Assembly (NCBI RefSeq): GCF_004794515.1
Contig: NZ_SSDF01000082.1
Coordinates: 62,001-126,000 of the forward strand
Length of the DNA: 64,000 nt
Origin: Microbacterium sp. A20
GTDB lineage: Bacteria > Actinomycetota > Actinomycetes > Actinomycetales > Microbacteriaceae
Reading direction: 5' to 3'
Below, one piece after another: positions 32,771-61,969 of this stretch (position 1 is the first letter of the stretch; each line of letters begins with the position of its first letter). A program made the position numbers and the translations under genes. The notes below the pieces were generated by a model. The model was given only the letters and a program-made list of their open reading frames with translations, had not been told where the DNA came from and did not search any database.

Positions 32771-33136
32771 TCAACGCCGAAGCTGCTCGACGCGTTCGGA
32801 CTCCCCCCAGGCGCGATCCGCCGTGAGCGCGACCGCGTCGAGGCGGGCCGCCACCGCGAGGCACAGGCGATCGCCGAGCGAGAGTCCACTCCCGCGCTTC
32901 CACAGGCGGGCTGCCTCCTCGGCGTCACGGTGCGACACCGGCTCGACGCGCAGTCGATAGCTGAGCAGCAGTCCGGATGCCACGCCCCAGTCGGCACCGG
33001 AGGCCCGCACCTTCTGGGCGACCTCGGACCAGTTCGCCGCCCCGACCACCGCTTCGTCGAGAACCTCCTCGACGCGATCCGCTCCGGGTTCGCCCTGCAG
33101 GAATGCGAGGAGTGCGGACGCATCCAGAACGATCAC
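32771..33136 (-). CDS. vapC: VapC-type PIN-domain toxin
   Basis: A 121-aa PIN ribonuclease, expected to cut tRNA or rRNA. The four acidic positions are visible: Asp5 in MIVLDASALLAFL, Glu in ANWSEVAQKV, Asp in LSLGDRLCLA and Asp in ALTADRAW. The ATG overlaps the antitoxin stop by four bases (33133-33136). Length is typical. Its promoter is that of vapB. Confidence 0.92.
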   Translation of the reverse strand: MIVLDASALLAFLQGEPGADRVEEVLDEAVVGAANWSEVAQKVRASGADWGVASGLLLSYRLRVEPVSHRDAEEAARLWKRGSGLSLGDRLCLAVAARLDAVALTADRAWGESERVEQLRR

Positions 33137-33381
33137 GCAGCGGCGTCCTCGGAGTTCGCGGCCGCCCGGCGTTCGGCGAGGAGCGATTCCAGAGCGTCCT
33201 TGCCTTCGAGCTGCGACCTGACGAGCGCCTTCGCCTGCTCGCGCGTGACGAGGATGACCCCACCCGCCGTCTCGATCATCAGCAGCGGGACGCCCTGCTC
33301 CCAGTGCTGGCGGGTGCGGAGCTCCGCGGGGACGACCAGACGGCCGCGATCACCCATCGGTGCGACGAACGTGGTATCCAT
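33133..33381 (-). CDS. vapB: VapB-type antitoxin, AbrB/SpoVT fold
   Basis: An 82-aa protein. Residues 3-50 form a swapped-hairpin DNA-binding domain (MGDRGRLVVPAELRTRQHW, then GVPLLMIETAGGVILVTREQA), and the C-terminal helix ALESLLAERRAAANSEDAA should embrace the toxin. It is first in a two-gene operon. TACCGT-N6-ATG marks a leaderless start, so the promoter, the operator and the start codon are almost superposed. Confidence 0.9.
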   Translation of the reverse strand: MDTTFVAPMGDRGRLVVPAELRTRQHWEQGVPLLMIETAGGVILVTREQAKALVRSQLEGKDALESLLAERRAAANSEDAAA

Positions 33382-33387
33382 GCATCC

Positions 33388-33393
33388 ACGGTA
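33388..33393 (-). promoter_or_regulatory. -10 box, leaderless vapBC operon
   Basis: TACCGT on the minus strand is exactly six bases before the vapB ATG at 33381. Confidence 0.5.
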
Positions 33394-33418
33394 CCACCCG
33401 CGAGTAGGCGGTGGGAGG

Positions 33419-35224
33419 TCAGTCGGCGCGGCTCAGACTCGTCAGCACCTCGGTGCGGGGTGCGGACGGCAGGATGAAGCGGAACTCGGTGCCCACGCCC
33501 TCCTGGCTGGCCACATCCATGCTCCCGCCGTGCGCCAGGACGATCGCCCGCGTGATCGTGAGACCGAGCCCGACACCCGGCACGGCGTTGCGCGTGGCTG
33601 TCGATGCACGGAAGAAGCGGGTGAACAGCATCCCCTGCTCGTCTTCCGGGATCCCGACACCCGTGTCCTGCACGGCGAGCTCCACTCCCCCGTCGACCAC
33701 CCGGACGCGGGCACTGACGCGCCCGCCACGCGGGGTGAACTTGATGGCGTTGGAGAGCAGGTTGTCGAGCGCCTGACCGATCCGCCCGGAGTCGATCAGG
33801 AGGGGGATCGCGTCGGCCCCCACCTCGGCTTCGATCGAGATGCCCTCGCGCTGCGCGTGCGGTCCCGCGGAGACGACAGCCGATCGCACCAGTTCGACGA
33901 CATCCGCCTCTTCGCGCTCGAGCGGGAACCGCCCGGATTCGACCTGCGCGGTGAACAGCAGGTCGCCGACCAGGTTGAGCAGACGCTTCGCATTGCGCTC
34001 GATGATGCCGACGAACTCCTGCTGGTCCTCGGTCAGCGGCTGTCCGGGGTCGTTCTGCAGCAGATCGAGGAACCCGATGATCGCGCTCAGCGGCGTGCGG
34101 AGCTCGTGGGAGATCATCCCGACGAACTCGTCCTTCATGCGCGCGACCTCGACGGCCCTGGTCTCGTCGGTGAGGACGAACAGATACCCCTGCTGCGCGC
34201 CCGCGCCGTCTTTGTGCGGGGTGACGGTGACCCGAGCGGGAACCGTCGTGCCGCCCGCCGTCGTCACCTCGATGTCTCCGTCGACCGAAAGGCCGGCGTC
34301 GGCCTGGGCGAACAGCGCCTGGATTCCGGGCGAGAGATCCGCATAGCCGGGCAGAAGCTCGTGGTCCGAGCCGGGGCGGTCCGCATTGTCGGCCGCCAGC
34401 ATCGACAGGACCGCCGTGGAGAAGAAGCGGTCGATGCGCACGCCGTCGCGCGCTTCCTCCGCCGAGAGCCCCAGCAGGCGCTCGGCTCCGGGGTTCCACG
34501 CCGTGATCTTCCCGCTGCAGTCCGTCGCGATCACCGCCTGCGCCGTGATTGACGCCCACAGACTCTCGAAGGAGTCCAGCAGTTCCCGGTACTGACGCTC
34601 CTTGTCGCGCAACTGCACGATCATCGCCACGTTCTCCGACAGCGCCTTGGTGCGCTCGACGACGAGTTCCTCCGCCTGCTCCACGCGCATGCGCTGCTGG
34701 CGGGACAGCTCGTTGACGACCGCGGCGACCGCGGAGAACACCAGCGGCCCGACGACACCGCGCAACCACTCGACCGAGGTCGACGGCGGGTCGGCGAAGT
34801 ACGGCATGAGCAGTGCGATGGAGGTGAGTCCGCCGACGACGAAGACCCAGCGGATGCCCGGGGCAGCCGCGATCCAGACCACGGGGAGGATGACCAGCGA
34901 GCCGAAGATCGACGAGGCGCCACCGGTACCGGCACGGAACAGCCCGAACCCGATGATGTCGACCATGGGGATGAGCAGCACGACCCAGCCGTCGTAGACA
35001 TGGCGGGCGCTCAGCACCACGGCTTGCACGGTCGCTGCGAGGACCAGTCCGAGCCCCAGGAGGGCGACGCCGAGATGTGTGAACGGCAGGTCCGCGTTAC
35101 CCCACGACAGGAGCGCCGCGATGACGATGGCGGCGGCGGACGGCAGCTGCTTGACCAGAGGGCTCGGGTTGTCGAACATCCGGTACCACCGGCTCTCGGC
35201 CCGGTCGATGGCCGTCGCCCTCAC
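33419..35224 (-). CDS. Membrane PAS sensor histidine kinase (last gene of the seven-gene operon)
   Basis: A 601-aa sensor. Five to six hydrophobic helices lie between about 27 and 172, an integral sensor with no large extracellular loop. A coiled coil follows (about 172-212), then a PAS domain (about 220-350, VIATDCSGKITAWNPGAERLLGLSAEEA). The H-box FVGMISHELRTPLSAIIGF carries phospho-acceptor His373; N-box DNLLSNAIKF, G1 VQDTGVGIPEDE and G2 GVGLGLTI complete an intact HisKA-HATPase module. Start GTG at 35224 overlaps the stop of the single-domain response regulator (GTGA). Likely partners are that regulator and the receiver fused to the deacetylase encoded first in the operon. Confidence 0.93.
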   Translation of the reverse strand: MRATAIDRAESRWYRMFDNPSPLVKQLPSAAAIVIAALLSWGNADLPFTHLGVALLGLGLVLAATVQAVVLSARHVYDGWVVLLIPMVDIIGFGLFRAGTGGASSIFGSLVILPVVWIAAAPGIRWVFVVGGLTSIALLMPYFADPPSTSVEWLRGVVGPLVFSAVAAVVNELSRQQRMRVEQAEELVVERTKALSENVAMIVQLRDKERQYRELLDSFESLWASITAQAVIATDCSGKITAWNPGAERLLGLSAEEARDGVRIDRFFSTAVLSMLAADNADRPGSDHELLPGYADLSPGIQALFAQADAGLSVDGDIEVTTAGGTTVPARVTVTPHKDGAGAQQGYLFVLTDETRAVEVARMKDEFVGMISHELRTPLSAIIGFLDLLQNDPGQPLTEDQQEFVGIIERNAKRLLNLVGDLLFTAQVESGRFPLEREEADVVELVRSAVVSAGPHAQREGISIEAEVGADAIPLLIDSGRIGQALDNLLSNAIKFTPRGGRVSARVRVVDGGVELAVQDTGVGIPEDEQGMLFTRFFRASTATRNAVPGVGLGLTITRAIVLAHGGSMDVASQEGVGTEFRFILPSAPRTEVLTSLSRAD

Positions 35225-35568
35225 TTCTTCACCTGCTCCACGATCCGATGCAGATCCGCGCCCGTGATCGGCTTCGGCAGCGCGGCATCCGCCGGCGGGT
35301 AGTCGGCGGCATCGAGCACCGAGCTGATCACGAGGAAGCAGTCGGGGAACTGCTCCTGCACCAGGCGCGCGCACGCCTGCCCCGAGATCCCCGGAAGCAG
35401 CAGATCGAGTACGGCGACCGCGGGATCGATCTCCGGGAATGCCGCGATCGCCGACTCGGCGTCATGCGCGATGAAGACGTCGAAGCCCTCGCGCTCGAGA
35501 TAGCGGCGCAGGAGCGCAGCCTGATCGGGGGCGTCCTCGACGACGAGAGCCAACGGCCTCCCGGTCAT
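35221..35568 (-). CDS. Single-domain response regulator
   Basis: A 115-aa CheY-like receiver with no output domain: acidic pocket Glu11-Asp12, phospho-acceptor Asp55 in VAVLDLLLPG, Ser-Ser in place of the usual switch Thr (VISSVLD), and Lys in AALPKPITG. It may act as a phosphate shuttle or sink. Start ATG 35568 overlaps the 47-aa gene's stop (ATGA), and its stop overlaps the kinase GTG. Longer upstream frames run through the glycosyltransferase gene and are not used. Confidence 0.9.
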   Translation of the reverse strand: MTGRPLALVVEDAPDQAALLRRYLEREGFDVFIAHDAESAIAAFPEIDPAVAVLDLLLPGISGQACARLVQEQFPDCFLVISSVLDAADYPPADAALPKPITGADLHRIVEQVKK

Positions 35569-35708
35569 CGAAGGAACAGCTCTCGCACGACGACCACGAC
35601 GATGACGACAGCGAGCGCGAGGGCCGCCTGCGGGATCAGTCGTCGCTCGCGTCGGGCATCCGCGACGATCTCCTCCCGCTCGGCTTCGGGTGACGGTGCA
35701 GCGGTCAT
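35565..35708 (-). CDS. 47-aa single-pass membrane peptide
   Basis: A tiny gene locked between the glycosyltransferase and response-regulator genes by ATGA overlaps on both sides (35705-35708 and 35565-35568), which is strong support for its being real. Residues 1-25 are charged (SPEAEREEIVADARRERR) and 26-42 form one very hydrophobic helix (ALALAVVIVVVVV), ending RELFLR. No homologue is recognised. By position it may be an accessory or regulatory subunit of the membrane glycosyltransferase or the kinase. Confidence 0.75.
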   Translation of the reverse strand: MTAAPSPEAEREEIVADARRERRLIPQAALALAVVIVVVVVRELFLR

Positions 35709-37192
35709 GAGTCGACGCGTCCGATCTTCTCGGTCTTGATCCAGGAGGCGTCTGCGCGACGCCACTCTTTGATGTAGGAATCCACGGTGATGGCACACAG
35801 CAGGGAGCCGTAGCCGCAGACGTAGAGCAGAAGCCCTGCGAAGAACCGCCCGCCGGGGAGCGGCTCCACCGCGCGCGCCAGCCAGATCCCGAGCATCGAG
35901 ATCGGACCCCACAGGTAGAACACCACGGCCCAGAAGATGCGGGACTGATCCGTGAGGCCCAGCCCCACAGCGGCGAGGAGGGACTCGAAAGCCCAGGGGA
36001 ACAGGGCGATCGCCATCAGGATGAGCGCCCCCAGCCCCGGGAACATGATCGCCTCGCGCCAGGAGTGCCGGCCCGTCCGTGGATCGAGCTGCACCGAGTA
36101 CAGCATCGAGAACAGGTAGATGCAGGCCGCCGAGATCCACATGAAGCGGAAGACGAACTCCGCGATGTCGCTGTGCAGGAAGAGCAGGGCGAGCATTCCC
36201 GCCGCCGCCAGGAGCATGAACGCGGGGAGCAGCAGGATGGTGAACCAGGCCAGCCCGAACGAGAAGCTGCCCAGGTTGTGCTCCCGGCTCGGTCGGAACC
36301 ACAGCTTGCGGTAGATCGAGGTGAGCTGCACGTTGCCGCGGGCCCAGCGCAGTCTCTGCTTCCAGAGGCTGTCGATCGTCCGGGGCTCTTCGGCCAGCAC
36401 GACGGCGTGCGGCTCGAAGACCATCCGACGACCCTTGAGCTGACCCTCGAACGTCGTCATCGTGTCTTCGGCGAGAGTCCCCGTCGGGATGCGCCCGCCG
36501 ATCGCCTCCAGGTTCGCCCGCGAATGCAGCTGGGCGCCCCCGGCGAGACAGGCGATCGCGCCGCCCACGTTCTGCACACGGCGAGCGGACAGCTGGCCGA
36601 TCACGTACTCGATCGCGATGAAGCGGGTGAGGTAGTTCCGGTCACGGCTGCCCTCCGCGATATAGGCGGTGACGGCCCCGACCTTCTCGTCGGCGAGATG
36701 CCGGCTGAGTTTGCGCAGGGAGTCGCGCGCGAAGATGACGTCGGCATCCATGATGAGCACGGCTTCGGTCCAGGCATCGGCGAGCACCACGCCCAGGCCG
36801 TGGTTGAGCGTGTGAGCCTTGCCCTCGCCGCCCTTCTCCCGACGCAGGTGCACGACCCGTCCGGGGTGGGCATCGGCCTTCGCCGCGACGATGGCGGGGG
36901 TGTCGTCGGTGGACGCGTCGTCGACGACGAACACGCGCAGGCGCTCGGCGGGGTACTCCAACTGGAGCAGCCGCTCGATCGCCGGGCCGATGACCGCCCC
37001 CTCGTTCCACGCCGGGATGATGACGGCGACGTTCGGATGGTACGGCGCCGCCTTGCCGTAGTGGTTGCGGAAGGCGTGCACCGGAAGCATGAGGAACTGC
37101 AGCCCGGTGTTGATCACCGGCAGCGTGCCGACCAGGACGCACAGCAGGAGGATGACCACGAAGACGGTCTGCAGCCAGGTCAGGTCGGCCAT
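35705..37192 (-). CDS. Membrane family-2 glycosyltransferase, processive type
   Basis: A 495-aa inverting GT2 enzyme of the cellulose/hyaluronan/poly-GlcNAc synthase class. One helix is at about 9-28, then the GT-A domain with VVDDAST (89-95), DAD (149-151), ED (242-243) and QRLRW (279-283): the D, DxD, ED and QxxRW set of processive synthases. Five more helices lie between about 300 and 480, consistent with synthesis coupled to export. No PilZ domain. Acceptor and sugar are unknown. Start ATG 37192 overlaps the PHP gene's stop (TGATG). The N-terminal deacetylase gene of this operon recalls the synthase-plus-deacetylase pairing of poly-GlcNAc loci. Confidence 0.92.
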   Translation of the reverse strand: MADLTWLQTVFVVILLLCVLVGTLPVINTGLQFLMLPVHAFRNHYGKAAPYHPNVAVIIPAWNEGAVIGPAIERLLQLEYPAERLRVFVVDDASTDDTPAIVAAKADAHPGRVVHLRREKGGEGKAHTLNHGLGVVLADAWTEAVLIMDADVIFARDSLRKLSRHLADEKVGAVTAYIAEGSRDRNYLTRFIAIEYVIGQLSARRVQNVGGAIACLAGGAQLHSRANLEAIGGRIPTGTLAEDTMTTFEGQLKGRRMVFEPHAVVLAEEPRTIDSLWKQRLRWARGNVQLTSIYRKLWFRPSREHNLGSFSFGLAWFTILLLPAFMLLAAAGMLALLFLHSDIAEFVFRFMWISAACIYLFSMLYSVQLDPRTGRHSWREAIMFPGLGALILMAIALFPWAFESLLAAVGLGLTDQSRIFWAVVFYLWGPISMLGIWLARAVEPLPGGRFFAGLLLYVCGYGSLLCAITVDSYIKEWRRADASWIKTEKIGRVDS

Positions 37193-37905
37193 CAGGAGGC
37201 CTCCACCGCGTCGAGCAGGGGGATGACACGCGAGTATCGGCCGACCTCGGCGGCATCGTGGCTGTCGGTGGAGGCGACGATCGCTCCCCCGGCACGCAGA
37301 AGAGCCGACAGCGCGTCGGCGCCGGGGCACCCCCACTTCTCATTGACCTCGACCAGAGTGTCGGTCTCGGCCGCCGCGCGCGCCCACGCCTCCGTGCGCT
37401 CCCGCCCGAGATCGAGCTCGGACAGACCGATCTTGGGGAGGATCGAGAAGCAGTGCGCGAGCTGGTTGCCGGGATGCCGGCGCATCGTCGCGATGAGCGC
37501 GTCGACCAGCTCGTCCAGCACGTCGTCGGGGGCCCAGCCCGCGGCCATCCGTTCGCGCACGGCTGTGGGGCCGAGCGGGCCGTCGACGCCCGGGAACTGG
37601 TGATCGGCGATCAGGATCCGGTCGATGCCGTTCGGAAGAGCCGGGATGTCGAGCGACCCCGCGGCGTCGAGGATCTTGGCCTCCACGCCCGTGAGCACGG
37701 TCAGTCCCTCGGGCAGCCGCAGCCCGCGGACGGCAGCCACGTACTCCGGCACCCACGTGGTGCTCTGGCGCACATGATCGACGAGACGCAGTGTGGTCAG
37801 CCCGGCGGCCGCCGCCGCCTCGACGTTCTCGGCGAGGGTCGACACCGCATCGTCCGAGAAGGTCGAGTGCACGTGGAAGTCACCGCGCAGCACGGCGTGA
37901 CTCAC
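37192..37905 (-). CDS. PHP-domain metal-dependent phosphoesterase
   Basis: A 237-aa PHP enzyme. Metal-ligand motifs appear in order: HVHSTFSDDA, RLVDHV, GVEAKI, IADHQFPG, AHCFSIL, VEVNEKWG and STDSHDAAEVGR. It is shorter than DNA polymerase X and resembles histidinol-phosphatase-like PHP proteins, but histidine synthesis is not the context. It probably removes a phosphate from a sugar phosphate or other metabolite in the operon's pathway. Start GTG 37905 overlaps the ATP-grasp stop (GTGA), with GGAGGAG just upstream. Confidence 0.88.
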   Translation of the reverse strand: MSHAVLRGDFHVHSTFSDDAVSTLAENVEAAAAAGLTTLRLVDHVRQSTTWVPEYVAAVRGLRLPEGLTVLTGVEAKILDAAGSLDIPALPNGIDRILIADHQFPGVDGPLGPTAVRERMAAGWAPDDVLDELVDALIATMRRHPGNQLAHCFSILPKIGLSELDLGRERTEAWARAAAETDTLVEVNEKWGCPGADALSALLRAGGAIVASTDSHDAAEVGRYSRVIPLLDAVEAS

Positions 37906-38891
37906 AGCTCCTCCTGATGGCCCGCGTGGGCGGAGACCAGCACGTCGTCGACCTCGACGATCACATCCTCCAGGAAGCGCACCGACGCGACCTCGCGGAA
38001 CGGCACGCGCACCGGCAGCTCGCGTCCGAGGAACAGGTCGGCCACGAGTGACGGGATGTCGACACCGGCCGCGATCGTCAGCGGCAGTGCGCCGGGGAAG
38101 CGCGGGTTGACCTCGAGCAGCACGGCCCGGTCGGCGCGGTCCCGGCGCAGCTGCACGTTCGCGACTCCGACGAGTCCGATGGCGCGGGCGATCGCTGCCG
38201 CCGCGTCCTCGAGCTCCGGATTCTGCACGGTACGTCCGGCGATGGCGACCCCGGAATCGACCCGCGCGCGGGTGCGGGGCACCGCGGCGACCACGTGTCC
38301 CGCCGCATCCGCGATGACGTCGACCGAGTACTCCTCCCCCGGGAGGAAGTCCTGCACGATGAGACCCTCGTCCGTCGGGAGCGCCTCGAGTGCCGCCCGG
38401 TCGGGCACGAGGCGCACGCCGCGGCTGCCGGCGCCCTGACGCGGCTTGGCGAAGACCGGGAACTCCCAGTCGACCGCCTGAGCATCGGGGCCGGCGAGGA
38501 CCGTGCGCGGAGTGAGCCCGGTCGGCGCGCACCGTTCGGCGAGCGCGAGCTTGTCGAGAGCGGTGTTGAGCGTGTCTGCCGACGGGGCCGCGAGCACGGC
38601 GGGCGCGAGTTCCTCCCGCCGCTCGGCCAGGGCGATGAGCTCGACATCGACCGTCGAGATCACGAGGTCGAGCTGATCGGCCTCGACCAGCCGCGCGATC
38701 GCCGGCACGAAGTCGTCATCCCTTCCCGGCGGGACCAGGCGACGCTGCTCCGCCGGCACCAGGTAGATACCACTCGCCCAGCCGTCCATGTCGGCGGCGA
38801 ACACGGTCAGATCGGATCGGCGGAGGAGGGATCGGATCACGGCGACTCCGGCCGGTCCGCCTGCTCCGGTCACCAGCACACGCTTCGTCAT
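37902..38891 (-). CDS. ATP-grasp ligase (carbamoyl-phosphate-synthase-like)
   Basis: A 329-aa ATP-grasp enzyme expected to activate a carboxylate as acyl phosphate and join it to an amine or other nucleophile. The N-terminal nucleotide-fold domain reads RVLVTGAGGPAGVAVIRSLL, the phosphate loop is FAKPRQGAGSRGVRLV, and the Mg site is LLEVNPRFPG. Similar stand-alone proteins appear in surface-glycan and peptide-like biosynthetic loci. Substrates cannot be read from sequence. The ATG overlaps the preceding gene's stop (TGATG, 38889-38893). Confidence 0.9.
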   Translation of the reverse strand: MTKRVLVTGAGGPAGVAVIRSLLRRSDLTVFAADMDGWASGIYLVPAEQRRLVPPGRDDDFVPAIARLVEADQLDLVISTVDVELIALAERREELAPAVLAAPSADTLNTALDKLALAERCAPTGLTPRTVLAGPDAQAVDWEFPVFAKPRQGAGSRGVRLVPDRAALEALPTDEGLIVQDFLPGEEYSVDVIADAAGHVVAAVPRTRARVDSGVAIAGRTVQNPELEDAAAAIARAIGLVGVANVQLRRDRADRAVLLEVNPRFPGALPLTIAAGVDIPSLVADLFLGRELPVRVPFREVASVRFLEDVIVEVDDVLVSAHAGHQEEL

Positions 38892-39934
38892 CAGCTCTCC
38901 CGTCGGCTGAGTTCATGGGCGCCGATGAACTCGGCTGTCTCGCGCACCACTTCCAAGGGTTCGACGGCTGTTCCGCCCCCGAACCGCGACCAGTACCGCG
39001 CCGTCGCGGTGACGAACTCGGGCGCCAGATAGTCGCGGCTCGCCGTCTGCGAGCCGAAGCGCTCCAGCAGTCGGAGCTTGTCGTCGAGATACTGATCGAT
39101 CCGCACGAACCGGGTCGGACGGAAGTCGATCGTCGACGACGGGCTCTGGTAGCAGGCGACCGTTCCCACTCGGCGGGTCGCCACGATGGTGGCCTCGCTC
39201 ACTGCGCGGTGATCCTGGTGGCGGTCGTTGCTCGAGTGCGTGTAGACGATCGTCGGCTGGATCTCCTGCACGACCTCCTCGATGAGGCGCACCGTCGAGC
39301 CGCCGCCCGAGATCTCGGTGTCCACGAGATCCTTCAGGAACAGCCGGGCACCGAGCATCTCCGCCGCCGCCAGCGACTCGTCCTGCCGGCTTTCGGCATC
39401 GCCCCCGCGCGCTCCGCGGGAAAGGGTGAGGATCGTGATCTCGTCCTGCGCCCGGGAGTGCGCCGCGAGGAGTCCCCCGACCCCGATCTCGACGTCGTCG
39501 GGATGGGCGCCGATCGCGAGCACGCGCTCCTTCGGGCGTGCTTCCTCGCGGCGGCGGCGGCCTTCTTCGACCAGTCGCGTGACCGACTCGACGAGCTTGG
39601 CGTTGTCGAGAGGCTTGGTGAGGAACTCATCCGCCTGCGCGCGCAGCGCCGAGACCGCGTACTCCACCGACACATGGGCAGTCATCACCACGACGGGCAC
39701 GGTGGGAACCGTGCGACGGAGCTCGGCGAGAAGCTCGAGCCCGTTGAGTCCGGGCATCTCGATATCGGTCACGACGACGTCGGGCCGCACCTGCGCCACG
39801 CGTTCGACAGCGGCCCTCCCGTCCTCGGCGACGTCGACGATGCAGCCGGCCCGCCTCTCGAGCACGGTCTTCACGAGCAGGGCGACGTCCGAGTCGTCGT
39901 CGACGACGAGTACGCGAGGAGCATCCTCTGGCAT
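38891..39934 (-). CDS. Receiver domain fused to PIG-L/LmbE deacetylase
   Basis: A 347-aa two-domain protein. Residues 6-122 are a response-regulator receiver: DDD at 12-14, phospho-acceptor Asp57 in VVTDIEMPG, Thr85 and Lys107. A charged helical linker (EEGRRRREEARPKE, 123-137) leads to a PIG-L-type zinc amidohydrolase with AHPDD (143-147) and HQDH (239-242), the family's metal ligands. PIG-L enzymes deacetylate GlcNAc-containing substrates such as GlcNAc-inositol or GlcNAc-PI. A phosphorylation-gated deacetylase is the simplest reading. Start ATG 39934 follows AAGGAG; the longer frame to 40063 has no support. First gene of the seven-gene operon. Confidence 0.92.
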   Translation of the reverse strand: MPEDAPRVLVVDDDSDVALLVKTVLERRAGCIVDVAEDGRAAVERVAQVRPDVVVTDIEMPGLNGLELLAELRRTVPTVPVVVMTAHVSVEYAVSALRAQADEFLTKPLDNAKLVESVTRLVEEGRRRREEARPKERVLAIGAHPDDVEIGVGGLLAAHSRAQDEITILTLSRGARGGDAESRQDESLAAAEMLGARLFLKDLVDTEISGGGSTVRLIEEVVQEIQPTIVYTHSSNDRHQDHRAVSEATIVATRRVGTVACYQSPSSTIDFRPTRFVRIDQYLDDKLRLLERFGSQTASRDYLAPEFVTATARYWSRFGGGTAVEPLEVVRETAEFIGAHELSRRES

Positions 39935-40148
39935 AGGTGCGGCTCTCCTTGGGGAGGTTCCCTGACCGATGGGGATCGGTCGTGCGACCTCGGCGCCTTC
40001 ATCACCGGGGCCGCTGGGAAAGTCGAGCGGGGTATGTCGATTCTGGCATAGGCCCGCACGCACCGAGGGAGGCGCATCCGCATGCGTTCATGGACGAGAT
40101 CGATCCTCGACGCACCCGCCGATCGTGCCCCTCCTGCGTGGCGCTGTC
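39935..40148 (-). promoter_or_regulatory. Upstream region of the seven-gene operon
   Basis: The 214-base gap contains only the Shine-Dalgarno AAGGAG close to 39934 and no clear terminator for the DUF2277 gene that ends at 40149. The promoter of the operon must lie here, or the operon is read through from DUF2277. I cannot assign -35/-10 boxes with confidence. Confidence 0.4.
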
Positions 40149-40463
40149 TCAGGATCCGGCCGCCGCAGCGCGCTTCTCCTGCTGGAAGACGCGGATGGCC
40201 TCGTAACGGTCGGCCGAGCGGGCGCGGCGCTTGGCCGCCTCCTCGTCGCGGTTCTTCGGCGGCGCGGTCGTGACGAGCTCGTCGAGGAGGACTCTCGTCG
40301 CCTGCGCGATCTCGGCGACCGCACGGTCGAACACGGCGCGATTGGCACGCGACGGCGCGTTCGCTCCGGAGATCTTCCGCACGAACTGGAGGGCCGCGTC
40401 GTGGCACTCGTCATCGGTCGCGGCAGGCTCGAGGTTGTTCAGCGGGACGATGTTTCGGCACAT
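40149..40463 (-). CDS. DUF2277 family protein
   Basis: A 104-aa cytoplasmic protein beginning MCRNIVPLNNLEPAATDDECHDAALQFVRKISG, the exact opening style of DUF2277 (MCRNI...L.N..P.AT..E...AA.QFVRK.SG). The C-terminal half is basic and helical. Function is unknown. The first Cys and Asn are conserved in the family. TAGCGT-N6-ATG indicates a leaderless transcript. Confidence 0.9.
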   Translation of the reverse strand: MCRNIVPLNNLEPAATDDECHDAALQFVRKISGANAPSRANRAVFDRAVAEIAQATRVLLDELVTTAPPKNRDEEAAKRRARSADRYEAIRVFQQEKRAAAAGS

Positions 40464-40469
40464 ACCGGC

Positions 40470-40475
40470 ACGCTA
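40470..40475 (-). promoter_or_regulatory. -10 box, leaderless DUF2277 gene
   Basis: TAGCGT on the minus strand is six bases before the ATG at 40463. Confidence 0.5.
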
Positions 40476-40515
40476 CGCCGCGTCCCGGACAGACGGAAGA
40501 GGAGCAGGTCGCGGC

Positions 40516-43002: not shown

Positions 43003-44355
43003 GTGGGACCCACAACAATCGCCGTGCAGCGAAGGCGCCCCTGGGCCGTCATCTGCCTCGGTATCCTCATGGCGCTCATGGCGTTCCTTTTCCTGCCCCC
43101 CTCATCGGCGTCGGCCGAGACGACGGACGACGGGCAGGAGGTCACGGACTTCTACTTCGCCGGTGTCGTCACCAACGCGGATGAACCGGTAGAAGGCGTC
43201 GTCATGTCCATCGAGGGCAACGGCTTCGAAGCCGAGACCGAGACCGACGCCGAAGGCAAATGGCGCCTCTATGTGCCGGAGATGGAGACGTACACCCTCA
43301 CGGTGGACGAATCCACGCTGCCGAAGGGTGTCATCGTCGACGCGACCCAGCTCCCCGAGGGCATCCAGCCCGTATCGGGGACCACCGCGTCGTTCGAGCT
43401 CGAATTCGGCCTCACGGGCACCAAGATCGTCAACTTCTTCCTCGGAGCGGGCGAGCGGGTCACCGTGTCGTTCCTCGATCAGCTCCTGTCACGCATCGTC
43501 GGCGGCTTGAACTTCGGGCTCCTCCTCGGACTCGCGTCGATGGGTGCCGCGCTCATCTACGGCACCACTCGCCTCTCCAACTTCGCCCACGGCGAGATGG
43601 TCACGTGGGGTGCCGTGGTCGCGCTGCTGTGCACGACCTTCTGGAACCTCCCCCTCTGGCTCGGCATCATCGCCGCCGTCATCGGCGGAGCCGCGCTCGG
43701 GTGGGCGCTGGATGCCGGGATCTGGAAGCCCCTGCGTCGAAAAGGTCTCGGTGTGGTCCAGCTCATGATCGTGAGCATCGGCCTCTCCCTCGCCCTCCGA
43801 TACGGCATGCAGTACTTCATCGGCGGCAACACCTATCAGCTGCCGGGCGCGAGCCCCGAGCCCATCCGCCTCGGACCCATCTCGCTGTCGTACATCGACA
43901 TGATCGCGATGGCGACCAGCATCATCGTGATCCTCGGTGTCGCGTTCTTCCTCACCAGGACCCGCACCGGAAAGGCGACCCGAGCGATCTCGGACAACCC
44001 GCAACTGGCCGCGGCATCCGGCATCGACGTCGACAAGGTCATCCGCACGGTGTGGATCCTCGCGGGGGCGCTCGCCGCGATCTCCGGCATCCTGTGGGCG
44101 TACTTCCGCCCCGGCGTGAAGTGGGACATGGGCATGCAGATGCTGCTGCTGATGTTCTGCGCGATCACGCTCGGCGGCCTCGGATCGGCGATCGGCGCCC
44201 TGATCGGCTCGATCATCGTCGGGCTCGCCGTCGAGGTGTCGACCCTGCTGGGCGTGCCGTCGGATCTCAAGTACGCCACGGCACTCGTCGCCCTGATCAT
44301 CATTCTGCTGGTGCGGCCGCAAGGCATCCTCGGACGCAAGGAAAGGTTGGGCTGA
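43003..44355 (+). CDS. livH: Branched-chain amino-acid ABC permease LivH with extra N-terminal extracytoplasmic domain
   Basis: A 450-aa membrane permease, about 150 residues longer than ordinary LivH. Residues 1-38 form a signal peptide (WAVICLGILMALMAFLFLPP, then SSASAETTDD). Residues 50-125 form a carboxypeptidase-regulatory/SdrB-like beta-sandwich (FAGVVTNADEPVEGVVMSIE, TETDAEGKWRLYVP, YTLTVDESTLPKGV). The permease core begins at about 165 (GGLNFGLLLGLASMGAALIYGTTRLSNFAHGEMV is split across this point). The GTG at 43003 has GGAGG upstream, and the extension is in continuous high-GC-codon frame, so it is real. First of livHMGF. The domain may help contact the binding protein. Confidence 0.92.
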   Translation: MGPTTIAVQRRRPWAVICLGILMALMAFLFLPPSSASAETTDDGQEVTDFYFAGVVTNADEPVEGVVMSIEGNGFEAETETDAEGKWRLYVPEMETYTLTVDESTLPKGVIVDATQLPEGIQPVSGTTASFELEFGLTGTKIVNFFLGAGERVTVSFLDQLLSRIVGGLNFGLLLGLASMGAALIYGTTRLSNFAHGEMVTWGAVVALLCTTFWNLPLWLGIIAAVIGGAALGWALDAGIWKPLRRKGLGVVQLMIVSIGLSLALRYGMQYFIGGNTYQLPGASPEPIRLGPISLSYIDMIAMATSIIVILGVAFFLTRTRTGKATRAISDNPQLAAASGIDVDKVIRTVWILAGALAAISGILWAYFRPGVKWDMGMQMLLLMFCAITLGGLGSAIGALIGSIIVGLAVEVSTLLGVPSDLKYATALVALIIILLVRPQGILGRKERLG

Positions 44356-56738: not shown

Positions 56739-57110
56739 TCAGCCCAGCGGAGCGCGGAGCGGGTAGTCCTGATCCTCGAGGATCACCTGCGACGCGGCTC
56801 CTGTGCTGCGATTGACGATCACGGGAGCCATCAGGTTCACGCTCACGCCTTCTGCGGAGGGGTGGGCTACCACGAGGACCAGCGCATCATCGGCCGAGCC
56901 GAGCGCCAGGCTCTCGGCCTGCTCGTCGGAGAGGATCGGCGCGTACTCGCCGAGCACGGTCCGGGGGTCGACCAGGTACAGCCGCAGGTCCACGTCGTCC
57001 ACGGCCCGCATCGAGAACAGACCGTCAGCACCGTCGACCGGCGCGAGAGCGAAGTCGACGTGCGGAGCGAGCCCCGGAGGGGGCGTCAGGAAGCTGAGTG
57101 CGGCGGTCAT
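56739..57110 (-). CDS. fliW: Flagellar assembly factor FliW
   Basis: A 123-aa beta-barrel protein that binds flagellin and, in many bacteria, antagonises CsrA to couple flagellin synthesis to export. Family-like segments are LSFLTPPPGLAPHVDFALAPVDGADGLFSM, LYLVDP and SVNLMAPVIVNRSTGAASQVIL. The ATG overlaps the flgL stop (ATGA), so it ends the flgN-flgK-flgL-fliW unit. csrA, which often follows fliW, is absent from this window. Confidence 0.92.
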   Translation of the reverse strand: MTAALSFLTPPPGLAPHVDFALAPVDGADGLFSMRAVDDVDLRLYLVDPRTVLGEYAPILSDEQAESLALGSADDALVLVVAHPSAEGVSVNLMAPVIVNRSTGAASQVILEDQDYPLRAPLG

Positions 57111-57988
57111 CGCAGGAAGTCCATCAGCGAGGGCTGCAGCACGCGGGCGTTGACGGCGAGCGCGGAGCGGTACACGAGCTCCTGCGCCTGCAGACGCACC
57201 AGCACCTCGATCGAATCGACGTCCTCGACCGCCGTGCGGCGGGATTCGAGGGACACGGAATTCTGCACTGCCGCCTCCTTGGCGCGTTCGATCTGAGACT
57301 GGCGGGTTCCGACGGAACCCTGCACCCCGAGCATGGCCGTGCGTCGGTCGTCGATCTCCGCGAGGCGCGGACCGACGTTCGTTCCGGAGCGCAGGTCGGC
57401 GACGATCTTGTCGACCAGCGCGAACACCGAGTCGTCACCGGTGCCGAACACCGCGGCGCCGTCGGTGTCGACCCGGACGGATGCCGCGTCGGAGACGCGA
57501 CGGCTGACCTCGGACCCTGCCACGCCGCTGTACGAGTAGTCCGCGGCGAACGCCGCCGTGTCGGAGGTACCCGCGAACACCGAACGGCCGAGCAGCCGGG
57601 TGTTCGCCTGCGTGAGGAGCTCCTTGCGGATGCCCTCGAGCTCGACGGCCAGGGCCTCCTTGGCGGTCGCGTCCAGTGCACCGTCGTTCGCACCCTGGGA
57701 GGTGAGGTCGCGGACCCGGCTCAGCAGCGAGGTGCTCGCGGTGATCGCGACATCCGCCGCCGTGACCCACGCGAGCCCGTCGTCGATGTTGCGCGCGTAC
57801 TGGTCGTTGCGGCGCTGCTCGGCGTGCAGGGCGAGGGCGGCTGCCGCGGCTGCCGGGTCTTCGGACGGAGTGGCGAAGGCGCGCTGCGACGTCGCCTGCT
57901 CCTGCAGACGTGCCAGCTCCGTGAGGTTCGACTGCAGCTGGCGCATCGCCGTCTGCGTCATGGATGACGATGTCACTCGAGAGATCAC
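57107..57988 (-). CDS. flgL: Flagellar hook-filament junction protein FlgL
   Basis: A 293-aa second junction protein between hook and filament. Flagellin-like N-terminus (VTSSSMTQTAMRQLQSNLTELARLQEQATSQRAFATPSEDPAAAA) and C-terminal coiled region (SLESRRTAVEDVDSIEVLVRLQAQELVYRSALAVNARV) surround a short variable middle. Start GTG 57988 with AAAGGAG four bases upstream. It follows flgK by 12 bases. Confidence 0.94.
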   Translation of the reverse strand: MISRVTSSSMTQTAMRQLQSNLTELARLQEQATSQRAFATPSEDPAAAAAALALHAEQRRNDQYARNIDDGLAWVTAADVAITASTSLLSRVRDLTSQGANDGALDATAKEALAVELEGIRKELLTQANTRLLGRSVFAGTSDTAAFAADYSYSGVAGSEVSRRVSDAASVRVDTDGAAVFGTGDDSVFALVDKIVADLRSGTNVGPRLAEIDDRRTAMLGVQGSVGTRQSQIERAKEAAVQNSVSLESRRTAVEDVDSIEVLVRLQAQELVYRSALAVNARVLQPSLMDFLR

Positions 57989-58000
57989 GATGCTCCTTTA

Positions 58001-59410
58001 TCAGCGTCCGACGAGGCCCGTGCGGTTGATGAGGACGTCGAGCGCCTCATCCACCGCCGTCATCACGCGGGCTGCGGCCTGGTAAGCGGTCTGGTAGGTG
58101 AGCAGACTGATGGTCTCCTCGTCGCCGTCGACGGCGGCCACGGACTGCTGCGCCCCGACCGCGGCGACCGCCGCCGAATCGGAGACCTTCGCCCGCTGCA
58201 CGTCGGCGGCCGTCGCCACCCCGAAGCGCGTGACGTGATCGGACCAGAGCGCGTCGGGCGAGGTGGCGCTCCGCCCGATCTGCGAGATCAGATCGGCATT
58301 CGTCGCATCCAGCGCACCGGCGCCCGGTGCGGCGAGCGCCAGCTCAGACGGACTCGTCACGGCGACCCGCAGTCCGAGCGCGGCCGAACCGGTCGTCGGG
58401 AGGGTGAAGAAGTCTCCGCCCGGCTGGCCGGACGAGGTGACACCCGCGCGGTGCTGCGCGTTCAGCGCACCGGCCAGTGCCGTCGCCACCGCGTCGTAGG
58501 TCGAGGCGAGCTGAGCGAGCATCCCGCCGTCCGCTGCCGGTGCGAGCACGGCGAGCGAACCACCGAGCTCGCCGCCGTCGATCGAAGCCGGGAGGTCGGG
58601 GGCGGACTCCCACGAGACGGTGAAGCGCTGACCCGCGTCGATCGAGGCCGGACCGGTGAGCGCGAGGTGTCGGGAATCGGACCCCGAGACCAGCGCGTTG
58701 CCGCCGACGCGGAGGGTCATCGACCCGTCGCTCTCGATCGTGGCCGCCGCCCCGGACATCCGGGCGACGTTCTGCGCGAGGACGCTGCGCTGGTCCATGA
58801 GCTCGTTCGCCGAGCGGCCGGAGGCGAGGGCGTCGCGGATCTCGCCGTTGAGCACGGCGATCTGGTCCGCAGCCGCGTTCACCTGGGTCACGGTGCGCTC
58901 GGCCGTCGCGCGCGCATCGTTCCACTGCGAAGCCACGGTGCGGTAGCCGCCGGCGATGTGGGAGGCGAGCTCCTTCGCGGATTCGAGGATGGTGGACGCC
59001 GCCGCGCCGGAGTCCGGCGTGTTCGCGAGGTCCTGCCATCCGGACCAGAACTTCGACAGCCGGGCCGCCAGTCCCTTCTCGGTGGGCTCGGCGAGCGAAG
59101 CCTCGATCGTGGTCGCGGCCACCGCGCGCGTGGACCAGAAGCCCGATGCGGCGAGCGAGTCGCGGACACGAGCATCGAGCAGCGCATCACCGAGCCGGGC
59201 CACGCCGTCGATCGAGACGCCGTGCCCGGGGAGGGCGCCGACGCTGAATCGGCCCGACTGGGCGATGGCGGCGACCGCAGAGGTCTGCACCCGCTGACGG
59301 GTGTACCCCTCTGTCTTCTGGTTGGCGATGTTCTGCCCGACCACATCCATACCGCGTCGCGCGGCCGCGAGTCCGCTGGCTGCGGTGTTCAATCCACTGA
59401 AGGTCGACAT
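58001..59410 (-). CDS. flgK: Flagellar hook-associated protein FlgK
   Basis: A 469-aa first hook-filament junction protein. The N-terminal rod/hook signature is FSGLNTAASGLAAARRGMDVVGQNIANQKTEGYTRQRV, and the C-terminal coiled-coil is EETISLLTYQTAYQAAARVMTAVDEALDVLINRTG. The start ATG at 59410 has GGAAGGGGA upstream; the frame to 59473 lies inside flgN's 3' end and is not used. Second gene of the flgN operon. Confidence 0.96.
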   Translation of the reverse strand: MSTFSGLNTAASGLAAARRGMDVVGQNIANQKTEGYTRQRVQTSAVAAIAQSGRFSVGALPGHGVSIDGVARLGDALLDARVRDSLAASGFWSTRAVAATTIEASLAEPTEKGLAARLSKFWSGWQDLANTPDSGAAASTILESAKELASHIAGGYRTVASQWNDARATAERTVTQVNAAADQIAVLNGEIRDALASGRSANELMDQRSVLAQNVARMSGAAATIESDGSMTLRVGGNALVSGSDSRHLALTGPASIDAGQRFTVSWESAPDLPASIDGGELGGSLAVLAPAADGGMLAQLASTYDAVATALAGALNAQHRAGVTSSGQPGGDFFTLPTTGSAALGLRVAVTSPSELALAAPGAGALDATNADLISQIGRSATSPDALWSDHVTRFGVATAADVQRAKVSDSAAVAAVGAQQSVAAVDGDEETISLLTYQTAYQAAARVMTAVDEALDVLINRTGLVGR

Positions 59411-59423
59411 GATCCCCTTCCGG

Positions 59424-59906
59424 TCACATCTCGGTGTCGATGATGCGCGCTGCGTCGTCGCGTGCGCGGTCACCGTTCGTCGTGTATTCGCCCGTCTCGT
59501 GCCCCAGCGCGGCGAGCGTCTCCTGAGTGGCGCGGAGCACTCCGCTGAGCTGCTCCGTGTTGGCGTCGCGCAGCTGCTCGACCTCGGCGGCGAGTCTGGT
59601 CAGCGCCCGCATGTGGTCTGCGAACACCTCCTGCCAGGCTCCCTCCGGCGCATGCGCGACCAGTTCTCGGATCGTCGCGCCCTCTGGAGCCCCCCACTCT
59701 TCGGCGACCGCGGCGACCTCGACGGTGCGCGCGAGTCCTGCACCACGCAGGCGATCGAGAACCTGATCGATCTCGCGGGCGGCAAACTGGATCCACTGGG
59801 ATCGTCCGGCGGCGAGCAGCAGCTGCTGTTCGTCTAGTTTGAAGAGCAGCATCTCGAGCAGTTCACGCTCTCGCCACAGCTGTATCGATAGTTCGTTGGC
59901 TCCCAT
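59424..59906 (-). CDS. flgN: Flagellar export chaperone FlgN
   Basis: A 160-aa helical protein (coiled-coil-forming stretches at about 8-50 and 95-150) in the position of FlgN, the chaperone that protects FlgK and FlgL before export. ELSIQLWRERELLEMLLFKLDEQQLLL is the family-like opening. Start ATG 59906 follows AAAAGGGGA. A FliA-type promoter sits 52 bases upstream, making this a late flagellar operon. Confidence 0.85.
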   Translation of the reverse strand: MGANELSIQLWRERELLEMLLFKLDEQQLLLAAGRSQWIQFAAREIDQVLDRLRGAGLARTVEVAAVAEEWGAPEGATIRELVAHAPEGAWQEVFADHMRALTRLAAEVEQLRDANTEQLSGVLRATQETLAALGHETGEYTTNGDRARDDAARIIDTEM

Positions 59907-59957
59907 GATCCCCTTTTCCCCAGTGATCGCCACGCCTGTTAACGCGGCCAAAGGTCA

Positions 59958-59984
59958 CTATCGGCTGCCGCGCCCCTAAGGTTA
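59958..59984 (-). promoter_or_regulatory. FliA (sigma-28) promoter of flgN-flgK-flgL-fliW
   Basis: On the minus strand TAAC (59981-59984), 15 bases, GCCGATAG (59958-59965), against the consensus TAAA-N15-GCCGATAA. An identical pair precedes fliC. Confidence 0.88.
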
Positions 59985-60102
59985 CTATGTGGAACGGCGG
60001 TGGGTAGTTCTCCCCATGTACAGATCGCGACAAGTGTGATATGTGCATCTACTCATCTCCTTGGAGCTTCCGGAGTGAATCCAGAGAGGTGGATCATCCC
60101 CC

Positions 60103-60903
60103 ATGTCGTCGCGCGCTGAGCGCAATCTCCTCATCGAGAGCAACCTCCCCCTGGTCGGCTACCTCGCATCCGAAACGCACGCTCGAGCCACTCATATCCC
60201 CCGTGACGAGCTGGCGTCGGTCGGAGCGCTCGCGCTCGTGACCGCCGCCGACGCCTTCGACCCGGCTCTGGGCGTGCCCTTCGGCGCCTATGCACGCCGC
60301 CGCATCCTCGGTGCGTTCGCCGACGAGATGCGTTCCATGGACTGGGCATCCCGCGGCATCCGCAAGCGCATCAAAGAGACGGTCGCCGTCCGCGAAACCC
60401 TCACCGCCGGTCTCGGCAGGACGGCGACAGCCGCCGAGGTCGCCACGGCCATGGGTGTCGCGAAGGATGTCGTCCTCGAAGCCCTCGGCGATGCCGCCCG
60501 CACCGTCACCACACTGGAAGATCCCGCCGCACGCGATGTGGCGACCGAGGTCCTGCTGCCCGAGGAATCGGCGCTGGTCGGCGAACGGCGCGAGGTGCTG
60601 GAGCAGGCCGTAGCCGCGCTGCCCGAGCGCATGCGCCGGATCGTCCAGAGCGTCTACTTCGAAGAACGCCCCGTGAAGGAGATCGCCGAGGAGCTCGGCG
60701 TGACGCATTCCGCCGTATCGCAGCAGCGGTCGGAAGCCATCCGCCTGCTGCGCGACGCCCTGGACCGGTACTTCGCCGAGGGGGCAGCCCCCGCCACGAC
60801 CACACGGGTGTCGGCGAGCGCGCGCGATGCGTACTTCACGCGGATCGCCGACGCCGCCAGCGCGCGGATCGCCGGAGTCTTCCGCGAATCGGCTCCCGCC
60901 TGA
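60103..60903 (+). CDS. fliA: Flagellar sigma factor FliA (sigma-28/WhiG type)
   Basis: A 266-aa sigma factor with regions 2 (LLIESNLPLVGYLASETHARATHIPRDEL, then VPFGAYARRRILGAFADEMRSMDW), 3 (RKRIKETVAVRETLTAGLGR) and 4 (LPERMRRIVQSVYFEERPVKEIAEELGVTHSAVSQQRSEAIRLLR). Region 2.4 DEMRSMDWASRGIRK is characteristic of FliA/WhiG. About 30 extra residues lie at the C-terminus. The start ATG follows AGAGGTGG. It is divergent from the flgN operon, whose promoter it should recognise. No anti-sigma flgM is visible here. Confidence 0.93.
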   Translation: MSSRAERNLLIESNLPLVGYLASETHARATHIPRDELASVGALALVTAADAFDPALGVPFGAYARRRILGAFADEMRSMDWASRGIRKRIKETVAVRETLTAGLGRTATAAEVATAMGVAKDVVLEALGDAARTVTTLEDPAARDVATEVLLPEESALVGERREVLEQAVAALPERMRRIVQSVYFEERPVKEIAEELGVTHSAVSQQRSEAIRLLRDALDRYFAEGAAPATTTRVSASARDAYFTRIADAASARIAGVFRESAPA

Positions 60904-60954
60904 TCTCGAGGGACAACAACTGACTTTCCTCGACCCGGTGCGCTGAGTCTCGCC

Positions 60955-61878: not shown

Positions 61879-61911
61879 CCGCACAGCTTTTCACACGACT
61901 TTCGCGTCGGC

Positions 61912-61938
61912 TGTCACACCACGGCATCGTCGTTCGTC
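61912..61938 (+). promoter_or_regulatory. ECF41 promoter of the epimerase gene
   Basis: TGTCACA (61912-61918), 16 bases, CGTC (61935-61938): an exact match to the ECF41 signature, 31 bases before the ATG at 61970. Confidence 0.88.
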
Positions 61939-61969
61939 GAAGGGGGTGAGGAGAGAGAAAGGACGCATC

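What the first reader, a model, noticed from the sequence alone, without database searches (positions are those of the whole stretch)
33419..39934. Seven-gene phosphorelay-glycan cluster with every start overlapping the previous stop
Receiver-PIG-L deacetylase, ATP-grasp ligase, PHP phosphoesterase, processive-type GT2 (DxD, ED, QxxRW), 47-aa membrane peptide, single-domain receiver and membrane PAS kinase are encoded without a single free base between genes. Enzymes for making and deacetylating a glycan are thus translationally coupled to their own signalling proteins. I know of no characterised system with this set. The known parallel is the synthase-plus-deacetylase logic of poly-GlcNAc loci; the product itself is unknown.
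Basis: partly seen in the sequence, partly recalled or inferred. Interest (0 to 1): 0.75.

Follow-up and report, generated by a model that had tools for sequence, protein, structure and literature searches.

The report
Sensor-controlled sugar-polymer operon in actinobacteria
A compact seven-gene unit, kept together in many actinobacteria, seems to wire a membrane sensor straight into the enzymes that build and trim an unknown cell-surface sugar product, without passing through gene regulation.

Summary
Seven minus-strand genes (39934-33419) overlap at all six junctions by 1 or 4 nt. Overlap is conserved: 324 of 359 cluster junctions in distinct loci, against 171 of 722 other pairs. Of the 80 best-matching named loci found with the PHP gene, 43 have exactly these seven genes in order, all 80 have ATP-grasp next to PHP and 77 have the kinase.

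Best reading: a two-component system whose only enzyme effector is a receiver fused to a PIG-L deacetylase, feeding an ATP-grasp/PHP/membrane-GT2 glycan pathway. Receiver residues are intact in 109 of 111 loci with a linked kinase and in 4 of 15 without. PIG-L residues are intact in 53 of 53 tree rows with the other enzymes and in 7 of 19 without. Both trends rest on few independent events and are not significant after tree correction.

'Phosphorelay' is unsupported: no HPt in the cluster or the genome. 'Processive' is inferred; the product is unknown. My searches found no published description. New variant of a known kind.

The parts
38891..39934 (-). REC-PIG-L fusion (347 aa): N-terminal receiver (D13/D14, phosphoacceptor D57, T85, K107) and C-terminal PIG-L type domain (H144, D146, D147, R183, E186, H242); the only enzyme effector of the two-component system in the cluster
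   Evidence: Pfam Response_reg 110 bits, PIG-L 87.5 bits; residues invariant in 31 sequences; model pLDDT 86, PIG-L part closest to BC1534/BshB, Z 26
37902..38891 (-). ATP-grasp ligase (329 aa), PRK12767/ATPgrasp_Ter type
   Evidence: PF15632 109 bits; PRK12767 model 148.6 bits, below its cut-off of 390; nearest solved chain 2pn1
37192..37905 (-). PHP-domain phosphoesterase or metallohydrolase (237 aa), GTG start
   Evidence: PF02811 38.3 bits; invariant H11, H13, D18, H44, E75, H102, H151, D214, H216 in 26 sequences (metal role recalled)
35705..37192 (-). membrane GT2 glycosyltransferase (495 aa), D91-D92, D149xD151, E242D243, Q279xxR282W283
   Evidence: PF13641 110.6 bits; PgaC model 121 bits, below cut-off; model pLDDT 85 fits PcManGT Z 30.9, hyaluronan synthase Z 24.8, BcsA Z 24.2; motifs invariant in 30 sequences
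35565..35708 (-). 47-aa single-span membrane peptide (P47), likely partner of the GT2 or of the pathway
   Evidence: one hydrophobic segment 21-47; no Pfam or NCBIfam hit; a small membrane ORF overlaps the GT2 stop in 90 of 90 distinct loci with linked GT2, but in 0 of 3 relocated GT2 genes
35221..35568 (-). single-domain receiver (115 aa), no output domain
   Evidence: Response_reg 46.7 bits
33419..35224 (-). membrane sensor histidine kinase (601 aa): multi-span sensor, PAS, HisKA (SHELRTP), HATPase; GTG start
   Evidence: HisKA 73.6 and HATPase_c 96.4 bits, PAS; hydrophobic segments between 44 and 146

Best explanation
The operon is a glycan pathway controlled by a two-component system at the protein level. 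A membrane kinase senses an unknown signal and phosphorylates the receiver of the REC-PIG-L fusion and the free receiver, which may act as phosphate sink or partner. Phosphorylation switches or positions the PIG-L domain, which de-N-acetylates an amino-sugar intermediate in the cytoplasm. The freed amine is then acylated by the ATP-grasp ligase, the PHP enzyme removes a phosphate or trims an intermediate, and the membrane GT2, with its small membrane peptide, builds and probably exports the glycan. No gene in the cluster has a DNA-binding domain, so control is enzymatic rather than transcriptional. Shown: gene set, overlaps, conservation, co-loss, residue conservation. Inferred: phosphotransfer, deacetylation, amine as ligase substrate, export, identity of the product.
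For: Exact seven-gene order in 43 of 80 named loci, ATP-grasp next to PHP in 80, kinase in 77. In the family sample all 17 of 199 genomes with the ATP-grasp orthologue are among the 31 fusion carriers. No ATP-grasp or GT2 orthologue anywhere in the 14 other carriers. Three genomes whose operon lacks GT2 keep an orthologue elsewhere. Receiver residues are intact in 109 of 111 kinase-linked loci (the two others are cut or broken) but degenerate in L060, L101-L103 and L107, which have no linked kinase. PIG-L residues are intact in 53 of 53 enzyme-bearing tree rows against 7 of 19 without the enzymes. Overlaps and the GT2-peptide pair are conserved. GT2 fold is of the synthase type; PIG-L fold is like BshB and diacetylchitobiose deacetylase.
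Against: No experiment. Few independent evolutionary events: for enzymes and PIG-L residues 5 independent pairs on supported branches, sign test p 0.25-1; for kinase and receiver 3 pairs, p 0.5-1 (none goes the wrong way). Four fusions without a linked kinase keep an intact receiver: L046 and L056, and L095 and L184, which lie near a contig end and may be cut. Seven rows without PHP and the full enzyme set keep intact PIG-L residues (L048, L050, L051, L092, L094, L097, L100), so PIG-L may have another substrate. The PIG-L fold list also holds a hydratase, GalB. The kinase family also occurs without PIG-L.
Confidence: 0.55

Rival explanations
1. The kinase, free receivers and REC-PIG-L form the old unit; the ATP-grasp/PHP/GT2/peptide block is a separate cassette that sits with it for dosage only. 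The receiver controls oligomer state or location of the fusion, not the pathway.
For: Form without the other enzymes in 14 of 31 carriers; kinase with receivers but no PIG-L in 7 of 10 fetched kinase loci; enzyme core without linked kinase in L101-L103 and L105.
Against: Short forms lie among full forms on the tree (5 changes, at least 4 forced by well supported branches), which looks like repeated block loss; L062 looks like a remnant of such a loss; PIG-L residues vary where the enzymes are missing.
Confidence: 0.2
2. The product is a modified lipid-linked oligosaccharide or glycolipid: the GT2 adds one sugar to a lipid carrier and is not processive. (A variant of the best explanation, differing in the product.)
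For: Closest solved fold is the mannosyltransferase PcManGT (Z 30.9, 340 aligned), above hyaluronan synthase (24.8) and BcsA (24.2). PIG-L enzymes mostly act on small or lipid-linked amino sugars (recalled).
Against: QxxRW motif present and invariant in 30 sequences; a small membrane partner is always encoded beside the linked GT2; in three relatives a predicted secreted protein follows the peptide.
Confidence: 0.3
3. The cluster makes a small metabolite, such as a thiol of the mycothiol or bacillithiol type, or a nucleoside-like compound as proposed for Ter-linked ATP-grasp genes (proposal recalled).
For: PIG-L fold closest to BC1534/BshB; ATP-grasp matches ATPgrasp_Ter; this genome shows no other PIG-L match and no MshC above cut-off, so the mycothiol route appears absent.
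Against: GT2 is a multi-span membrane enzyme of the synthase type, not a soluble GT4; the set is patchy within the genus (25 of 149), unlike a housekeeping thiol.
Confidence: 0.08
4. Ordinary dense packing: the overlaps and neighbourhood carry no functional meaning.
For: Overlaps are common in this window (10 of 32 other pairs).
Against: 324 of 359 cluster junctions overlap against 171 of 722 others; gene order kept across families; 90 of 90 GT2-peptide overlaps against 8 of 956 in the control scan.
Confidence: 0.03

Closest known systems
CheB-type response regulators (receiver fused to an enzyme)
   Same: N-terminal receiver with intact phosphoacceptor fused to a catalytic domain; no DNA-binding output. 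A CheB structure is in the fold list (E 2.9e-9, rank 47), probably through its receiver
   Different: Output is a PIG-L type domain in a glycan operon, not a methylesterase; effect of phosphorylation untested
Receivers fused to metabolic enzymes, e.g. REC-BcsA-like glycosyltransferase of Methanobacteriaceae (PMC5847659, passages and section 14 read)
   Same: Receiver directly attached to a glycan-related enzyme
   Different: There the receiver sits on the glycosyltransferase; here it sits on the PIG-L domain, the GT2 being separate
poly-GlcNAc loci pgaABCD / icaADBC (make-up recalled)
   Same: Membrane GT2 synthase, deacetylase and a small membrane protein in one operon
   Different: GT2 scores 121 bits against the PgaC cut-off of 422; deacetylase is PIG-L with no hydrophobic segment, not an extracytoplasmic CE4 enzyme; extra ATP-grasp, PHP and signalling genes
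REC-phosphatase + STAS-like + RsbW-like + cellulose-synthase-like GT2 cassettes of the same bacterial family (L063-L065)
   Same: Receiver 53-59% identical to that of the fusion, also next to a GT2
   Different: Output is a phosphatase-type domain with a likely partner switch, not PIG-L
Mycothiol and bacillithiol pathways (details recalled)
   Same: Order of chemistry: glycosyl transfer, PIG-L deacetylation, ligation to the amine
   Different: GT4 and other ligases there; membrane GT2 and ATP-grasp here; no signalling genes there

Membership tests
Response regulator with enzymatic output | Receiver domain with acidic pocket, phosphoacceptor Asp, Thr/Ser and Lys | tested here: met
   Response_reg 110 bits; D13, D14, D57, T85, K107 invariant in 31 sequences
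Response regulator with enzymatic output | Fused catalytic domain, no DNA-binding domain | tested here: met
   PIG-L 87.5 bits, no DNA-binding model; PIG-L fold Z 26
Response regulator with enzymatic output | Phosphorylation changes activity | not testable with these tools
   Only indirect: receiver residues follow kinase linkage
PIG-L family (PF02585) | Model score above gathering and metal-site residues | tested here: met
   87.5 against 28.2 bits; H144, D146, D147, H242 all present in 118 of 126 distinct loci
PIG-L family (PF02585) | De-N-acetylase activity | not testable with these tools
   Fold list also holds GalB, a hydratase
Phosphorelay | HPt domain or hybrid kinase between kinase and final receiver | tested here: not met
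   Kinase carries HisKA, HATPase_c and PAS, no receiver; HPt family PF01627 has no match in the whole genome, while it matches 8 of 14 control genomes
poly-GlcNAc (pga/ica) locus | PgaC/IcaA synthase above model cut-off | tested here: not met
   121.2 against 422.3 bits
poly-GlcNAc (pga/ica) locus | CE4 polysaccharide deacetylase PgaB/IcaB | tested here: not met
   Deacetylase gene matches PF02585; no polysaccharide-deacetylase model among the hits of the seven genes
Membrane GT2 synthase (HasA/BcsA/PgaC-like) | DD, DxD, ED, QxxRW motifs and C-terminal membrane spans | tested here: met
   Motifs invariant in 30 sequences; hydrophobic segments; fold Z about 20-31 to such enzymes
Membrane GT2 synthase (HasA/BcsA/PgaC-like) | Processive polymer synthesis | not testable with these tools
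   Best fold match is a mannosyltransferase
ATPgrasp_Ter (PF15632) | Model above gathering score | tested here: met
   109.1 against 29.1 bits
ATPgrasp_Ter (PF15632) | Tellurium-resistance (Ter) genes alongside | tested here: inconclusive
   None among the seven genes or eight flanking ORFs scanned; wider genome not searched

The most novel reading that the evidence does not exclude
A family of actinobacterial two-component systems without transcriptional output steers cell-surface glycans through interchangeable receiver-enzyme effectors. One effector is REC-PIG-L, which gates an ATP-grasp-dependent substitution of freed amines on a GT2-made polymer, an aminoacylated or amidated glycan of a new kind. 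The other is a REC-phosphatase acting by partner switch beside a cellulose-synthase-like GT2. The small membrane peptide is a new dedicated accessory of the GT2 pathway.
Probability: 0.27. Interest if true: 0.78.

Novelty: new variant of a known kind. Interest (0 to 1): 0.58.

Why it matters
Bacterial glycan synthases are usually tuned by transcription or by second messengers such as cyclic di-GMP (general knowledge). Here a sensor kinase appears to act directly on a glycan-modifying enzyme, in a unit conserved over many genera of actinobacteria and without an assigned function in the papers searched. The operon gives a defined gene set for finding a new surface product. The natural variants (kinase lost, enzymes lost, GT2 moved) make the direction of control directly testable.

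Tried and rejected
Rejected: chance packing; strain-specific assembly. Phosphorelay: no HPt in the genome. Mycothiol operon: no MshC above cut-off, best 264 against 485 bits; no other PIG-L match. Left open: glycolipid product, small metabolite.

Led nowhere: promoter and terminator scan of 33000-40500 gave no promoter-like site and one terminator-like site on the + strand, no more than the shuffles. The predicted secreted protein downstream in L101 and L103 matched no Pfam or NCBIfam model and, for L103, no PDB sequence; the L102 copy was not scanned. The conserved protein beside GT2 in L100 matched no Pfam model, no NCBIfam model above cut-off and no PDB sequence; that of L066 was scanned with NCBIfam alone. 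Their sugar-active role is only my reading. Ten literature searches in the held open-access library gave no description of this operon or of a REC-PIG-L protein; I judged this from the listings, and read passages of two papers only. Subscription papers are not held, so absence in print is not shown. Fold lists do not exclude unlisted families.

One search repeats these counts on 131 distinct loci, and its numbers are used here. The earlier ones were 116 of 118 and 4 of 15; 343 of 380 against 174 of 753; 97 of 97. One search also added a control for the GT2-peptide pair (32 of 956, 8 overlapping) and showed that the three relocated GT2 genes (L189-L191) have no such peptide.

Rows dropped: one search's all-loci tally left out L124, L142, L178 and L184 (cut or broken). 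The tree used 72 rows, with 24 of the 80 named loci; it is a quick tree with long branches (L107, L060, L104, L100). Searches left out seven divergent loci (L060, L066-L068, L105-L107) from the residue comparison. In one search, seven of nine non-carrier regions with the flanking gene were fetched; five were uninformative because that gene lies elsewhere there. The 80 loci are the best of 167 and over 30 of them are Microbacterium.
Full report
OBSERVATION. The seven genes are present on the minus strand between 39934 and 33419, with overlaps of 1, 4, 1, 4, 4 and 4 nt. Pfam confirms the domains above gathering scores: Response_reg plus PIG-L; ATPgrasp_Ter; PHP; Glyco_tranf_2_3; a second Response_reg; PAS, HisKA and HATPase_c. 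The 47-aa peptide has one hydrophobic segment and no family. NCBIfam places none of the three enzymes checked above a cut-off: best for GT2 is PgaC_IcaA at 121 bits (cut-off 422), for ATP-grasp PRK12767 at 149 (cut-off 390), for PHP PRK09248 at 54 (cut-off 264). The host is probably a Microbacterium of the M. oxydans group: the fusion is 99% identical to that of M. oxydans isolate Moxy_1 (inference).

CONSERVATION. In 199 genomes sampled from the family, 31 in 20 genera have a match spanning both domains of the fusion at E 1.2e-65 or better; two other genomes of the genus in that sample do not. In the genus, 25 of 149 do at E up to 1e-60. In the order, 24 of 297 match at E up to 1e-35; these include fusions in other families, and also PIG-L-only matches. 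In the phylum, 3 of 296 match: the window's own genome, one fusion outside the order and one PIG-L-only match. A scan of one genome per species with the PHP alignment gave 167 relatives, of which the best 80 were kept; all 80 titles name actinobacteria (Microbacterium, Leucobacter, Leifsonia, Agromyces, Salinibacterium, Sanguibacter, Cellulomonas and others). Of those 80 loci, which hold PHP by choice, 43 have exactly the seven genes in order, 80 have ATP-grasp next to PHP, 69 have GT2, 77 have the kinase and 79 have PIG-L or the fusion. In many loci a further stand-alone receiver of about 120-140 aa lies between the free receiver and the kinase; the window lacks it.

OVERLAPS. In 131 distinct loci, 324 of 359 cluster junctions overlap (315 by 4 or 1 nt), against 171 of 722 same-strand pairs outside the cluster (130 by 4 or 1 nt); in the window 10 of 32 other pairs overlap. 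All 90 distinct loci with a linked GT2 and room downstream have a small hydrophobic ORF starting 4 or 1 nt inside the GT2 stop; the same scan after 956 other genes finds 32, of which 8 overlap so; the three relocated GT2 genes have none. This supports translational coupling, which was not measured.

A DISCRETE UNIT THAT COMES AND GOES. In a relative without the cluster (L209), the DUF2277 gene that flanks the cluster in the window lies directly beside the ABC-F gene that flanks its other side; in L203 the site is also empty, and the ABC-F gene is missing too. In the family sample, all 17 genomes with the ATP-grasp orthologue are among the 31 fusion carriers and none is among the other 168 (Fisher p 1.6e-16, not corrected for kinship). 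The 14 fusion carriers without it have no ATP-grasp (E up to 1e-15) or GT2 (E up to 1e-25) orthologue in their assemblies, one of which is only 87% complete. Three genomes whose operon lacks GT2 keep an orthologue of 56-59% identity elsewhere, while a small membrane peptide stays in the operon. On the fusion tree the short form needs 5 changes, at least 4 forced by well supported branches, and lies among full forms: repeated loss of the enzyme block is the simplest reading. L062 looks like a remnant: its fusion ends just after the AHPDDV motif, and a weak peptide match, both receivers and the kinase remain.

TWO-WAY DEPENDENCE. Of 126 distinct loci with the PIG-L domain, 111 have a linked kinase and 109 of these keep the receiver residues; the two others, L124 and L142, are cut or broken. 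Fifteen have no linked kinase: four are intact (L046, L056, L095, L184; the last two lie near a contig end), five have a degenerate receiver-like part (L060, L101-L103, L107), and six have no receiver part to score (L066-L068, L105, L106, L178). Conversely, six PIG-L residues chosen before the count (H144, D146, D147, R183, E186, H242; roles recalled from the family) are intact in 53 of 53 tree rows that have ATP-grasp and PHP and in 7 of 19 that do not. R183, D205, T206, P265 and R300 are fixed or nearly so in 102 enzyme-bearing loci and variable in 17 others. So the receiver seems to need the kinase, and the PIG-L pocket seems to need the other enzymes. Against this: independent events are few (5 pairs and 3 pairs on supported branches); none is contrary, but sign-test p values are 0.25-1 and 0.5-1, and seven rows without the full enzyme set keep these PIG-L residues.

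FOLDS. The fusion model (pLDDT 86, pTM 0.73) has a receiver and a PIG-L domain closest to BC1534 and BshB (Z 26.4 and 26.3, 204-205 aligned), with diacetylchitobiose deacetylases at Z about 24 and the hydratase GalB at Z 24.6. The relative placing of the two domains was not examined. The GT2 model (pLDDT 85) matches PcManGT (Z 30.9), hyaluronan synthase (24.8) and BcsA (24.2).

SIGNALLING MODULE WITH EXCHANGEABLE OUTPUT. The kinase's sensor part occurs in 53 of 199 family genomes, more than the fusion. In 7 of 10 fetched loci (L210-L215, L218) the kinase stands with one or two stand-alone receivers and no PIG-L. In genomes G042, G122 and G191 a receiver 53-59% identical to that of the fusion is joined to a phosphatase-like domain next to a cellulose-synthase-like GT2, a STAS-like and an RsbW-like protein (L063 checked with NCBIfam; STAS by eye). 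In L219 the same sensor is joined to SpoIIE beside an RsbW-like gene. This suggests one sensor type with different effectors, some of them near a glycosyltransferase. It is inference.

MECHANISM. I commit to kinase to REC-PIG-L control of a deacetylation step in a glycan pathway (confidence 0.55). The ATP-grasp acting on the freed amine is my extension, by analogy with PIG-L-then-ligase order in thiol pathways (recalled). 'Phosphorelay' should be dropped: the kinase is not hybrid and the genome has no HPt match (8 of 14 control genomes do). Whether the glycan is a polymer or lipid-linked is open. In L101-L103 a predicted secreted protein of about 500-600 aa follows the peptide in place of the kinase, which leans to an extracellular product.

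NOVELTY. Receivers joined to metabolic enzymes are a known kind, including a receiver joined to a BcsA-like glycosyltransferase (PMC5847659, passages and section 14 read). PMC10384088 on Microbacterium biofilms (term search and passages only) has no occurrence of PIG-L, deacetylase, glycosyltransferase or response regulator in its main text. No paper in the listings I obtained describes a REC-PIG-L protein or this operon. I therefore file it as a new variant of a known kind.

Noticed in passing
32771-33381: PIN-domain toxin gene (Pfam) and a small antitoxin-like gene (by eye, no Pfam hit), overlapping each other, directly downstream of the kinase.
   Followed up: partly
L063 2931-6709; L064; L065: Cassette of cellulose-synthase-like GT2, STAS-like protein, RsbW-like kinase and a receiver-phosphatase whose receiver is 53-59% identical to that of the REC-PIG-L fusion.
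   Followed up: partly
L219 4982-6295: The kinase's membrane sensor domain joined directly to a SpoIIE phosphatase, next to an RsbW-like gene.
   Followed up: partly
L062 5289-8494: Apparent remnant of the operon: fusion cut just after the PIG-L AHPDDV motif, ATP-grasp, PHP and GT2 gone, signalling genes kept.
   Followed up: partly
L101 12090-13898; L102 5305-6807; L103 10101-11600: Predicted secreted protein of 500-602 aa after the small membrane peptide; L101 and L103 have no Pfam or NCBIfam match; may be sugar-active.
   Followed up: partly
L066 2918-7150; L100 8622-11966: Distant clusters of GT2 and ATP-grasp (with a PIG-L protein in L066) and a protein of 359-378 aa without a family match.
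   Followed up: partly
L192 (whole locus): The host genome holds a separate capsule-type polysaccharide cluster (by eye) with a second, distant ATP-grasp gene, about 84 kb from the operon on the same contig.
   Followed up: no
whole host genome (G000): One PIG-L match only and no MshC above cut-off: the mycothiol route appears to be absent in this actinobacterium.
   Followed up: partly
L189, L190, L191: GT2 orthologue moved away from the operon, each time beside a luciferase-like monooxygenase and an FMN-reductase-like gene (by eye), without the small peptide.
   Followed up: partly
43003-44355: LivH-type permease with an extra N-terminal carboxypeptidase-regulatory-like domain (below that model's cut-off).
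   Followed up: no
56739-63859: Flagellar genes (FlgL, FlgK, FliW and flagellin-like by eye).
   Followed up: no
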